This document shows positions 1 to 3,479 of a stretch of DNA of 64,000 bases, piece after piece; position 1 is the first letter of the stretch, and each line of letters opens with the position of its first letter. The stretch is from positions 1-64,000 of the forward strand of contig PLXS01000017.1 of the NCBI GenBank assembly GCA_003151515.1. The letters are read 5' to 3'. Position numbers and translations under genes: made by a program. A model generated the notes under the pieces. The model ran no database searches. It was not told the origin of the DNA and worked only from the letters and a program-made list of their open reading frames with translations. Source of the stretch: Opitutaceae bacterium. Its GTDB lineage: Bacteria; Verrucomicrobiota; Verrucomicrobiia; Opitutales; Opitutaceae.

Positions 1-80
1 GAACCGACGCTTGCCTCAGGCACGTCTCCTGCGGGGCAGGAGCCGCGCCATCGTTAGCGCGGTTCATTAGGACGTTCGGC
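1..80 (+). other. attC: attC recombination site (partial; 5' R'' box lies outside window)
   Basis: Ends in R' core GTTCGGC (74-80); internal hairpin CTCCTGC(26-32)/GCAGGAG(36-42); homologous over about 80 bp to the site at 820-917, sharing CATTAGGACGTT(A/C)GGC at the 3' end. Confidence 0.75.
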
Positions 81-161
81 GCGTATCTGCGGTCGGTAGA
101 TGTTCGTTTCTTGGTTAGGCTACCGTTGACTAGCGGTCTGTGTTGAGCAATCGTTGAGCTC

Positions 162-389
162 ATGAGAACGAGTCGTCAGTTCACTGCTATCATTCAACGC
201 GAGAATGACGGTTTCGTGGCGCTTTGTCCCGAGGTGGATGTGGCAAGCCAGGGGGATTCGGTGGAAGAGGCTCGCTCCAATCTACAGGAGGCGGTCGAAC
301 TGTTGCTCGAAACTGCTTCCCCGGCCGAGATTTCTGAACGGCTGCACGGTGAGACCTACGTCACGCGGCTGGAGGTCGGAGTTGGGTAG
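162..389 (+). CDS. hicB: HicB-family antitoxin
   Basis: 75 aa; FTAIIQRENDGFVALCPEVDVASQGDSVEEARSNLQEAVELLLE is a typical HicB-like fold sequence; located directly upstream of HicA. Confidence 0.88.
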   Translation: MRTSRQFTAIIQRENDGFVALCPEVDVASQGDSVEEARSNLQEAVELLLETASPAEISERLHGETYVTRLEVGVG

Positions 390-606
390 GCTAAGGATCT
401 TCTCAGCGAGTGAACTATGCCGGCTCATGGAGGAGCACGGGTTTCGCAACGTGCGACAAAAGGGCAGCCACATAATTCTTCAGAAGCAGGTTCTCGGAGG
501 AACAGTGACTGTTCCAGTGCCGAATCATCGCGAAATACGTATTGGGACTCTTAAGTCGATTGTTCGTCAATCGAAGCTCCCGAGCGCTCTATTCGAATTA
601 CCCTGA
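382..606 (+). CDS. hicA: HicA-family mRNA interferase toxin (TTG start, overlaps hicB stop)
   Basis: In-frame part of ORF 205..606: SASELCRLMEEHGFRNVRQKGSHIILQKQ...VPVPNHREIRIGTLKSIVRQSKL; contains the GSHIIL HicA signature. Confidence 0.87.
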   Translation: MGRLRIFSASELCRLMEEHGFRNVRQKGSHIILQKQVLGGTVTVPVPNHREIRIGTLKSIVRQSKLPSALFELP

Positions 607-652
607 GACCAAGAATAAGTGGAAGATCCTCGTCATTCAGCAAACTAGCAAG

Positions 653-829
653 ATGGGCTCGGTAAGACTAAAGATAGAGGGTGGGCAGGGCGGCCGGCGT
701 GGTCATTCAAACATGACTCATTGGGTCTCGACGGAAGAGATCAAGAGTGCGGCCAGAATCCGTCGCAGAAGAGAATCAAAGGCGATCATTGCCCGAGAGA
801 CGGTCGAAGCCATTGAGACGCCGAACTAA
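653..829 (+). CDS. small hypothetical cassette ORF
   Basis: MGSVRLKIEGGQGGRRGHSNMTHWVSTEEIKSAARIRRRRESKAIIARETVEAIETPN; stop codon adjoins the attC R'' box, as in many cassette genes. Confidence 0.4.
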   Translation: MGSVRLKIEGGQGGRRGHSNMTHWVSTEEIKSAARIRRRRESKAIIARETVEAIETPN

Positions 830-917
830 CTACCGGATCCGACGTCGCCGTCTGTCACGCCTCCTGCTGGAGCAGGCGGCGCGCCATCCGTCGCCGCGGA
901 TCATTAGGACGTTAGGC
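820..917 (+). other. attC: attC recombination site (98 bp)
   Basis: R'' GCCGAAC 820-826, R' GTTAGGC 911-917, internal stem GCC-t-CCTGCT (859-868)/AGCAGG-c-GGC (871-880). R'' is the exact reverse complement of GTTCGGC at the cassette start (74-80), as expected for a cassette. Confidence 0.85.
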
Positions 918-920
918 ATC

Positions 921-1301
921 ATGAGCTCGCACGTTACCACCCGAAGGCTTTGGACGGAGGTCGTTATCGCAGCGATCTTGGGCTCAGGCGAACTTGTCTT
1001 GATGAATGTGTCGGATACGCATCCCGGAGTCGGTCTTCTCGAGTTCGTCTACCCCCTTGTAGCCGGTTTAGTAATCGGCGCGTTTGGCCGGGGTCCCGTG
1101 TGGATTGTCGGTCCAGCTGCGATGCTAGTTCTCCCCGTTGGGATGCTCGTCGGAGCTGTCACAGGTGGCACTGGGCTGAATCTATGGCCGATCGCTCTGG
1201 TTTATTACGGCATTTTTGCGGTAATCGCTCTCGGCGGAGCTGCCGTTGGTCGCTGGATGGCGCGCCGCTGGAGAAATCGGAGCGTTACAAACGATGCCTA
1301 A
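921..1301 (+). CDS. small integral membrane protein (cassette gene)
   Basis: MSSHVTTRRLWTEVVIAAILGSGELVLMNVSDTHPGVGLLEFVYPLVAGLVIGAF...; several hydrophobic segments; stop overlaps GCCTAAC. Confidence 0.7.
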   Translation: MSSHVTTRRLWTEVVIAAILGSGELVLMNVSDTHPGVGLLEFVYPLVAGLVIGAFGRGPVWIVGPAAMLVLPVGMLVGAVTGGTGLNLWPIALVYYGIFAVIALGGAAVGRWMARRWRNRSVTNDA

Positions 1302-1332
1302 CCAACACCTGAGCACAACCGCGCAAGCAAAA
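1296..1332 (+). other. 5' end of a third attC (R'' GCCTAAC) interrupted by the IS110-type element
   Basis: GCCTAAC 1296-1302 matches the reverse complement of GTTAGGC at the start of this cassette (911-917); the expected attC body does not follow. Confidence 0.6.
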
Positions 1333-2169
1333 TCAGGTGATGGCGAGACGAGTAGCCAGCGATGATTTTTGGCGCTGGAGAGAGGCGAGATAGCGGGCCT
1401 CGTTATAGGGAGCGCGGTCATGCCAGCATCGCCAGAGGATGCGGATCCACTTGAAGGCGAGAGCGCGTAAGGTGGCTTGGTGGTGTTTGCCGGCTGCTCG
1501 TTGCTGTAGGTAGTACGCCTTCGCCCAAGAGCACTTGGGTATGGACTGGCCGGCCCATTCGACGAAGGTCTGGCGCAGGAACTTGGGCGCATTCCATCGC
1601 CAGTGGATCCAGAGCGAGTGGCCGCTTTTCTGCGTAACGGGAGCAATGCCGGCATATTTCTGAAGGCTGCAGGCGTCAGGATAGCGAGAGCGGTCGGTGC
1701 CGAAGGCTGCGAGCAGGCGAGGGGCGGTCGCCGGTCCCGCACCCGGCAGGCCTTTGAAGAGATCTGCCTCGGGATGGGCCTCGAAGGCCTCGGCGATGTG
1801 CTCCTCGATGAGGGAGATGTTTTTCTGGAGGGGCCGCAGGATGTCGACGAGCATTTTCACCTCGAGCATCGCGGGCTCGATGACGGCCCGGTCTTCGGTC
1901 AGCGCGCGTGCCTGGGCAATGAGGGCGAGCCGCTCAGCGACTACGTCAGCGTGCCGTGAGTTATGGGCGGCATAGAAGGCCCGGAGGATTGCGGGCCGGG
2001 CTGCCTTCAGGCTCCTGAGTTCCGGCCAGCGGGCTAGGAAGTCGAGCATCAGGTCGGTGGCCGGTTCGCGTCCGCACAGCTCCAGCGCCTGCGGGTAGTA
2101 GGTCTTGAGCGTGCTGGCCAGTTCGCAGGCTAGTGCTTTGGTGCAAAGGCCGACCCGGTTGCCTCCACG
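1333..2169 (-). pseudogene. IS110-family transposase, 5'-truncated
   Basis: LKTYYPQALELCGREPATDLMLDFLARWPELRSL...FKGLPGAGPATAPRLLAAFGTDRSRYPDACSLQKYAGIAPVTQKSG (Transposase_20 region). The N-terminal DEDD domain is missing; the reading frame hits a stop at 2170-2172 beside the integrase stop. Confidence 0.88.
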
Positions 2170-2189
2170 TCAAAGAATGCTCTCGATAA

Positions 2190-3317
2190 TCAGATTCTCA
2201 CTTTCTTAGCGGCCTCGACCGAATGCTCTTGGCGCAGGTGGCCATAGGTCCGCATCGCCAAAGCACCCCCATCGGCGTGCCCGAGCCAGCGCGAGATGGT
2301 CGGTATATCCACGCCTGACTCGATGCAAAGGGTCGCGAAGAAATGCCGCAGGTCGTGGTGGGTCATTCGATGGCAGCCGGCCTTTTCTGCCGCGCTCGTG
2401 AGCGCCTTTTGCGCCTCGTGAACGCGAAAGATCGAGTCTTCGGGTTTTGGTTTCCGTTCGGCGTGCAGCCTTTCGAGAAGCTGGCGCAGCGCCGGAATCA
2501 TCGGGATAGTCCGGTGGCTGGTCGCCGACTTCTCGCCGGGAATCGTGATTAGCCCCTTCTCGAAGTCCACATGACGCCAACGCAGGAGCGCGGCCTCGCC
2601 GATGCGCGCGCCGCTGTAAACCAACCCCTCGACCAAATCCCCGCAATCGCGACTCTGCCGTGAGCCGGCTGTGCGAACGGCCGCCACCAGTTGTGTGAAT
2701 TGAGCCCGCGATGGTAGTTCGAGTTTCTTCGCCCGGACACGGGCTTTCTCCAAATCAGCGGCTGGATTGCGGTAAATCGCTCCCTTCTCCACGCCGATCT
2801 CGAACAGGCGCCGGACGCAGTCAATGGCACCATTGACTGTCGTGTGACTCGCCGAGAGTCGGCGATGCTTTCCGCCATTCGGCACGAACTGGCTGCCGTT
2901 TGCCGTCAACTTGCGCAGCCACTCCCGGCAATCCGATTCCGAGACCCGCCGAATGTCGGCGAGCCGTAACTCGGGCCATGTTCGATCGAGCAATCGGATG
3001 AATCGCAAACGAAATTCTTTCGACCGCGCCTTGAGCCGGTGATCCGCTTTGACCGCGTCTTCGTAGACCGCGATGGCATCGCCGACGGTCATCTGGCCGG
3101 AATCAACGGCGGCGATGCGGTTGACGGCCCCTTTTACTTCATCTTCGAAATCGCGCAGGCGCAATTTGGCAACAGCCAGGACGGTCGTCTCAAGCGACCG
3201 CCATTTCTGCTTGCCAGCTACTTTCACCCGCCCGTAGTAGCTACCGCTCTGTCGGTTCTTTAACAGATTCGGAACACTGGTCGGAAGCCACCGAGTTTCT
3301 TTCACACTTGAGCTCAT
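2190..3317 (-). CDS. int: tyrosine-type site-specific integrase
   Basis: 375 aa; ...GLVYSGARIGEAALLRWRHVDF...HRMTHHDLRHFFATLCIESGVDIPTISRWLGHADGGALAMRTYGHL contains R...HxLRH...Y catalytic motifs. Confidence 0.93.
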   Translation of the reverse strand: MSSSVKETRWLPTSVPNLLKNRQSGSYYGRVKVAGKQKWRSLETTVLAVAKLRLRDFEDEVKGAVNRIAAVDSGQMTVGDAIAVYEDAVKADHRLKARSKEFRLRFIRLLDRTWPELRLADIRRVSESDCREWLRKLTANGSQFVPNGGKHRRLSASHTTVNGAIDCVRRLFEIGVEKGAIYRNPAADLEKARVRAKKLELPSRAQFTQLVAAVRTAGSRQSRDCGDLVEGLVYSGARIGEAALLRWRHVDFEKGLITIPGEKSATSHRTIPMIPALRQLLERLHAERKPKPEDSIFRVHEAQKALTSAAEKAGCHRMTHHDLRHFFATLCIESGVDIPTISRWLGHADGGALAMRTYGHLRQEHSVEAAKKVRI

Positions 3318-3403
3318 TCGATAGCCAAGAGTGTAGATAATCGGTGTAGAAAATTCAAGCAGTGAAATGAGTCTGTTACGTAAGTAATTGAATATAAGTT
3401 GAT

Positions 3404-3479
<76 letters not shown>

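What the first reader, a model, noticed from the sequence alone, without database searches (positions are those of the whole stretch)
1..1302. Integron-type gene cassette array carrying a HicBA toxin-antitoxin cassette
Two homologous sites end in the attC R' core (GTTCGGC 74-80, GTTAGGC 911-917) with the shared flank CATTAGGACGTT. The cassette between them starts TTCGGC, and its own attC begins with the exact complement GCCGAAC (820-826). The next cassette starts TTAGGC and ends with GCCTAAC (1296-1302). This pairing rule is the hallmark of circularisable cassettes. The central hairpins differ in sequence but keep pairing (CTCCTGC/GCAGGAG versus CCTGCT/AGCAGG), a compensatory pattern. No IntI integron integrase is visible in the window.
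Basis: partly seen in the sequence, partly recalled or inferred. Interest (0 to 1): 0.72.

Follow-up and report, generated by a model that had tools for sequence, protein, structure and literature searches.

The report
Integron cassettes, one cut by IS110
A bacterium of the Opitutaceae carries a stretch of a gene-capture array (an integron) holding a toxin-antitoxin cassette, and the join of its second cassette was hit by an apparently RNA-guided jumping element that repeatedly lands at exactly this kind of site in related bacteria.

Summary
The finding is confirmed. A covariance model built only from other genomes finds attC at 820-917 (96 bits, E 9e-22) and a 5'-truncated attC at 1-80 (66 bits), on the bottom strand, the strand that folds. 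Both cassettes obey the R''/R' rule 7/7. The first carries HicB-HicA, the second a membrane-like ORF. The window starts at a contig end. More attC lie near the ends of contigs C41 and C10 and inside C34. 57 of 150 family genomes hold such sites; 14 of 24 attC-positive ones have IntI above cut-off, and three same-genus genomes a divergent IntI. None was found in this assembly, so here it is a CALIN or a broken array.

Relatives show the same junction in other cassettes, an empty site, and a 5' noncoding RNA with bridge-RNA-like loops matching attC. attC-targeting by IS1111 elements is published; I found no report for an IS110-type element with the guide upstream of the transposase. The integrase at 2190-3317 is a tRNA-Phe island integrase, not IntI.

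The parts
1..80 (-). attC site, 5'-truncated by the contig start (R'' missing; R' GTTCGGC 74-80). Bottom strand is the folded strand
   Evidence: R2 65.8 bits, E 4e-14; bottom strand fold z -5.1
75..911 (+). Gene cassette 1 (TTCGGC ... attC), HicB-HicA toxin-antitoxin cassette
   Evidence: R' 74-80 and R'' 820-826 complementary 7/7
162..389 (+). hicB-like antitoxin ORF, 75 aa
   Evidence: Pfam DUF7387 E 2.9e-4, below that family's cut-off; assignment rests mainly on position before hicA
382..606 (+). hicA toxin ORF, 74 aa, TTG start overlapping the end of hicB
   Evidence: PF07927 HicA_toxin E 5e-18, 65.4 bits, cut-off 27
653..829 (+). small ORF of unknown function (58 aa), end overlapping the R'' box; may not be a gene
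   Evidence: no Pfam or NCBIfam match
820..917 (-). Complete attC site (R'' GCCGAAC 820-826, R' GTTAGGC 911-917)
   Evidence: R2 96.1 bits, E 9e-22; bottom strand z -3.8, top strand z -0.4
912..1304 (+). Gene cassette 2 up to R'' GCCTAAC (1296-1302) plus CA (1303-1304); the rest of its attC is separated by the IS110 insertion
   Evidence: R'/R'' complementary 7/7; same junction in G072
921..1301 (+). ORF of 126 aa, membrane-protein-like, stop codon inside R''
   Evidence: no NCBIfam match
1305..2136 (-). 3' part of an IS110 element (right end at 1305; transposase stop at 1333-1335; N-terminal part and the 5' noncoding RNA region lost)
   Evidence: Transposase_20 E 9e-15; NF033542 IS110 RNA-guided transposase E 4.5e-23; 77-78% identity to the intact element in G072
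2190..3317 (-). Phage-type tyrosine recombinase of a tRNA-Phe island, not IntI
   Evidence: PF00589 E 1e-19; TIGR02249 only 51.9 bits, best stretch limited to 66 C-terminal residues, cut-off 265; relatives mostly lie beside tRNA genes
3404..3479 (+). tRNA-Phe(GAA), probable island attachment site
   Evidence: 5'-half tRNA fragments in relatives

Best explanation
Positions 1-1304 are part of an integron cassette array of the bacterium's own lineage type (Opitutaceae, Verrucomicrobiota), without an integrase in the assembled genome (a CALIN, or an array broken by assembly). Shown: attC sites and cassette boundaries. Inferred from relatives: an IntI of the divergent genus type would fold the bottom strand of attC and cut between G and TT of R', so each cassette can circularise and be re-inserted. 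The HicBA cassette would act as an ordinary toxin-antitoxin module that penalises its own loss (inferred, untested). The array stops after the second cassette because an IS110 element inserted right after its R'' (RYYYAAC^CA). The intact relative carries upstream of its transposase an RNA with two stem-loops; one has a left guide TCCGGTAGA matching 8 of 9 bases of the attC L'' side and a right guide AACCA that pairs with the TG core plus the GTT of R'', and the other matches the element's own ends. The element therefore probably homes to attC by a bridge RNA and, by separating R'' from the rest, locks the cassette in place (inferred). Later the copy in the window lost its 5' part and now abuts the integrase of a tRNA-Phe island.
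For: attC: (independent model E 9e-22). Family-wide distribution and IntI; genus IntI resembles IntI4 (PDB 2a3v, E 6e-49) and keeps the IntI-specific insert. IS110 in attC: right-end junction CTCAGGTG[T/A]-TG-GTT of R'' in window, G072, G061, G074, G150; left end TG-TAT in G072, C41 end, G061, G074. Different cassettes, so separate insertions. Empty site: the same cassette is intact with its attC in G114 and split in G150, alignment starting exactly at TG. G072, G074 and G150 elements sit in attC arrays by the models. Bridge-RNA features: 5' noncoding region folds at z -5.95 into two stem-loops; inside the target loop the attC target scores 13 of 14, reached by 0 of 6648 other TG sites of the window; guide changes TCCGGTAGA to TCTGGCGAG go with target changes TCCGGTAGT to TCTGGCGGC. 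Nearest solved structures: IS621 and ISCro4 transposases.
Against: No IntI in this bin, so activity here is not shown; the genus IntI is below the TIGR02249 cut-off and lacks 3 residues near the catalytic patch. When the whole noncoding region is scanned freely, 101 of 3000 random targets reach the same guide score, so the guide assignment leans on the predicted loop. The C41 copy has guide TCCGGTAGA but its target side matches only 4 of 9. The window copy itself lacks the RNA region, so the guide is read from G072 and C41. HicB is supported only weakly.
Confidence: 0.88

Rival explanations
1. The sites are not attC but an intergenic repeat or REP-like hairpin family, and the boundary complementarity is coincidental.
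For: The sites are similar in sequence to one another.
Against: R''/R' pairing, strand asymmetry of folding, different ORF between each pair of sites, arrays beside IntI in complete relatives such as G075 (14 sites ending about 1 kb from IntI).
Confidence: 0.03
2. The array is intact in the cell and has its own IntI; the missing integrase and the contig end are assembly artefacts of a metagenome bin. (A version of the main explanation, not of a different system.)
For: Window begins at the contig end; C41 and C10 also end at attC sites or inside the IS; three genus members have IntI on short contigs; completeness 92%.
Against: No IntI anywhere in 3.6 Mb; some attC (C34, 174.9 kb of C41) are solitary or degenerate, which suits decayed CALINs.
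Confidence: 0.5
3. The IS110 insertions are not guided to attC; attC regions are merely tolerant, non-essential places where random insertions survive.
For: Cassette arrays are dispensable; the C41 copy matches its left guide poorly.
Against: The junction is at the same base relative to R'' (TG-GTT) in five of five copies of the clade with a readable right end, in different cassettes and attC types; more distant relatives have other targets, and in G080 the right-guide position matches its own target over 8 bases.
Confidence: 0.06
4. The tyrosine recombinase at 2190-3317 moves the cassettes (a substitute for IntI) or targets attC.
For: A homologue on C10 ends next to a degenerate attC.
Against: Of 16 homologous loci only that one has an attC above background, while ten have a tRNA gene close to the recombinase. 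The best match to the IntI model is limited to 66 C-terminal residues.
Confidence: 0.04

Closest known systems
Sedentary chromosomal integron cassette arrays and CALIN elements (reviewed in PMC8618304, which lists Verrucomicrobiota and toxin-antitoxin cassettes)
   Same: attC architecture, R''/R' rule, short cassettes, TA cassette, integrase sometimes missing
   Different: attC sequence type of this family; genus IntI is divergent (240-256 bits against a cut-off of 265)
IS1111-attC group elements (ISKpn4, ISPst6, ISPa25, ISPa21; Tetu and Holmes 2008 and Post and Hall 2009, cited in PMC11187229 and PMC11616780)
   Same: DEDD-type transposase family that inserts at one end of attC under guidance of a noncoding RNA
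   Different: Those have the noncoding region downstream of tnp and tnp of 330-350 aa (PMC11187229); here it is upstream (about 300 nt), tnp is 417 aa and the left (bottom-strand) guide precedes the right (top-strand) guide, as in IS110. An 8-bp subterminal inverted repeat GGTTGTGC/GCACAACC is nevertheless present
IS621 and other IS110 bridge-RNA elements (PMC11208160)
   Same: 5' noncoding RNA with a target loop and a donor loop, guides around a 2-bp core, long left end and short right end
   Different: Target is attC; core appears to be TG; longer subterminal repeats

Membership tests
Integron gene cassette / attC | R'' RYYYAAC and R' GTTRRRY, complementary within one cassette | tested here: met
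   Both cassettes 7/7
Integron gene cassette / attC | Imperfect bottom-strand hairpin conserved in structure | tested here: met
   z -3.8 and -5.1 bottom, -0.4 top; covariation in 50 sites; R2 hit E 9e-22
Integron gene cassette / attC | Recombined by IntI | not testable with these tools
   needs an assay
Complete integron | intI gene and attI beside the array | tested here: not met
   No IntI in window or bin; present in three same-genus genomes. The bin is incomplete
CALIN | attC cluster without a nearby IntI | tested here: inconclusive
   Two attC plus one split site in the window, no IntI, but the contig ends at position 1
HicBA toxin-antitoxin | HicA domain protein | tested here: met
   PF07927 E 5e-18
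HicBA toxin-antitoxin | HicB antitoxin next to hicA | tested here: inconclusive
   75-aa ORF in place, only DUF7387 E 3e-4, no NCBIfam match
IS110 group (bridge RNA upstream of tnp) | DEDD transposase with Transposase_20 domain | tested here: met
   for the remnant; NF033542 E 1.7e-38 (132.6 bits, just under its cut-off of 140) for the intact copy
IS110 group (bridge RNA upstream of tnp) | Long left end with two-loop RNA, short right end | tested here: met
   301 nt against about 30 nt in G072; fold z -5.95. Not testable in the window copy, whose 5' part is lost
IS110 group (bridge RNA upstream of tnp) | Guides match target and donor | tested here: met
   Target: 8/9 + 5/5, 0 of 6648 controls inside the predicted loop; donor loop CTCAGG and CAATACA read by eye. 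The C41 copy fits less well (4/9)
IS1111-attC group | Noncoding guide region downstream of tnp | tested here: not met
   upstream in G072, G061, G074
IntI for the recombinase at 2190-3317 | TIGR02249 above cut-off, IntI-specific insert | tested here: not met
   51.9 bits against 265

The most novel reading that the evidence does not exclude
A clade of true IS110-type elements (guide RNA upstream of the transposase, 417-aa enzyme) in Opitutaceae has its bridge RNA programmed to the universal part of integron attC sites (AAC of R'' plus a CA core, with a variable L'' half), so that it can home to many different cassettes and freeze them; this would be an attC-homing solution independent of the known IS1111-attC group.
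Probability: 0.7. Interest if true: 0.55.

Novelty: new variant of a known kind. Interest (0 to 1): 0.43.

Why it matters
The cassette array itself adds a well-supported case of integrons in Opitutaceae, with attC models that transfer across the family and a divergent IntI in the window's genus. The element in the attC would be a second, architecturally different group of RNA-guided elements that homes to integron recombination sites. It gives a natural series of guide and target pairs (G072, G061, G074, C41) to test how much of the guide matters, and a possible natural way in which integron cassettes become immobile.

Tried and rejected
Rfam found no RNA but the tRNA. A link between the phage-type recombinase and attC was tested and dropped: 1 of 16 homologous loci has an attC, most are tRNA islands. 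A tRNA-Phe 5'-half (island end) was looked for in window 1-3395 and not found, so whether the array lies inside the island is undecided. A first idea that CCTAAC in the noncoding RNA is the right guide was replaced by AACCA on the 3' side of the loop, which fits the fold and the other copies. NCBIfam gave nothing for HicA or HicB; Pfam did for HicA. The HicBA cassette was sought in 252 family genomes: only partial 71-72% matches in two genomes of another genus. The far boundary of the second IS (364-aa transposase) on C41 was not resolved.

Full report
The window is bases 1-64000 of contig C18 (74,943 bases) of a 42-contig, 3.6 Mb genome bin, 92% complete. A same-genus genome, G072, corresponds to the record 'Opitutaceae bacterium isolate bog_1449', so the organism belongs to the Opitutaceae, Verrucomicrobiota.

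Observation. Folding gives the strand asymmetry expected of attC: the bottom strand of 820-917 has z -3.8, the top strand -0.4; the bottom strand of 1-80 has z -5.1. Model R1, from four sites of this genome, finds further sites at C41 175.5 kb, C34 32.0 kb and C10 54.5 kb, with weaker ones on either side of the C41 site. To avoid circularity I built R2 from 50 sites of other genomes; it scores the two window sites 96.1 and 65.8 bits (E 9e-22 and 4e-14) and, apart from their opposite strands, nothing else in 64 kb below E 1. On those 50 sites 95.7% of pair cells are standard pairs and 17 of 28 pairs show changes on both sides, against 28-40% of cells for slid versions (the alignment was fitted to the structure).

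What the array is. Cassette 1 (75-911) encodes a HicB-like ORF, HicA (PF07927, E 5e-18) and perhaps a 58-aa ORF. Cassette 2 (912 onwards) encodes a membrane-like 126-aa ORF. 57 of 150 family genomes have matching attC, up to 27 in one genome; 14 of 24 attC-positive ones have IntI over the TIGR02249 cut-off, for example G075 with 14 attC ending about 1 kb from IntI. G072, G114 and G131, of the window's genus, have a divergent IntI at 240-256 bits; in G072 and G114 attC lie on the same short contig. The G072 protein is closest to IntI4 (2a3v, E 6e-49), keeps the IntI-specific insert, and lacks three residues near the catalytic patch. No IntI was found in the window's bin. Integrons in Verrucomicrobiota, TA cassettes and CALINs are all known (PMC8618304).

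Why the array stops. After R'' of cassette 2 (GCCTAAC 1296-1302) the expected L'' half is missing. From 1305 follows the right end of an IS110 element whose transposase reads leftwards and is broken near 2136. An intact 1.57-kb relative (tnp 417 aa) lies in G072 between IntI and two attC, with the same right junction and, on its other side, the L'' half CTACCGGATCCGACG. The first 186 bases of such an element also end contig C41, inserted in another attC of the window's genome (89% identity). Relatives in G061, G074 and G150 give the same right junction, TG followed by GTT of R''. For G150 an empty site exists: the same toxin-antitoxin-like cassette in G114 has an intact attC, and the alignment of the two starts exactly at TG. 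The G072, G074 and G150 elements lie in attC arrays.

How the element finds attC. IS110 elements are guided by an RNA whose target loop has a left guide pairing the bottom strand and a right guide pairing the top strand, both overlapping the core (PMC11208160). The G072 5' region (301 nt) folds at z -5.95 with two such stem-loops. In the target loop, TCCGGTAGA matches 8 of 9 bases left of TG, and AACCA pairs fully with TGGTT; no other TG site of the window (0 of 6648) does as well inside that loop, although a free scan of the whole region gives such scores for about 3% of random sites. In the donor loop CTCAGG and CAATACA match the element's own ends (read). In G074 guide and target changed together (TCTGGCG in both), and in G080, a more distant relative with another target, the right-guide position matches that target over 8 bases. 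The C41 copy is the exception: 4 of 9 on the left. The guide order (left before right) and the upstream position are those of the IS110 family, not of IS1111 (PMC11187229), whereas all published attC-homing elements I found are IS1111; a full-text search for IS110, attC and bridge RNA together returned one paper, which cites the IS1111 work. The library lacks most subscription papers, so absence of a report is weak evidence.

Right border. The integrase 2190-3317 is phage-type; homologues mostly lie beside various tRNA genes, and G148 has one beside tRNA-Phe in the same layout. tRNA-Phe 5'-half fragments occur in G131 and G148, suggesting islands on the 5' side of tRNA-Phe. No such fragment lies in window 1-3395 or elsewhere in the bin, so the cassettes may be cargo of this island, but this is not shown.

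Shown: attC, cassettes, IS110 junctions, relatives, empty site. Inferred: IntI-mediated mobility, TA function, bridge-RNA guidance, locking of the cassette.

Noticed in passing
L016:11702-12796 (G000:C41:176705-177796), minus strand: A second, different IS110/IS1111-family transposase (364 aa) sits in the L' side (CATCGTTAG|ATGACATG) of an attC that already carries the 5' end of the attC-homing IS110; two elements in one attC. Its far end was not resolved.
   Followed up: partly
L144:1342-2397 (-), L145:1055-2080, L146:388-1407, L082:1423-2583 (-): Divergent integron integrase lineage in the window's genus (and a second copy in G034) with the IntI-specific insert but a 3-residue deletion between ATH and LGHS.
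   Followed up: partly
window 2190-3479; L223, L222, L224: tRNA-Phe seems to be an island insertion site entered from the 5' side; 5'-half tRNA fragments occur three times upstream of tRNA-Phe in G131:C58.
   Followed up: partly
L015:8452-8547: Degenerate attC on C10 whose R' end overlaps the stop codon of a homologue of the window's phage-type integrase.
   Followed up: partly
L017:9980-10075 (C34:31980): Solitary attC after a nucleotidyltransferase-like ORF, with no second good site nearby.
   Followed up: no
L145:221-890 and L225 downstream of the IS right end: A toxin-antitoxin-like cassette shared by two genus members, first cassette next to IntI in G114. Assignment of its ORFs was by eye only.
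   Followed up: partly
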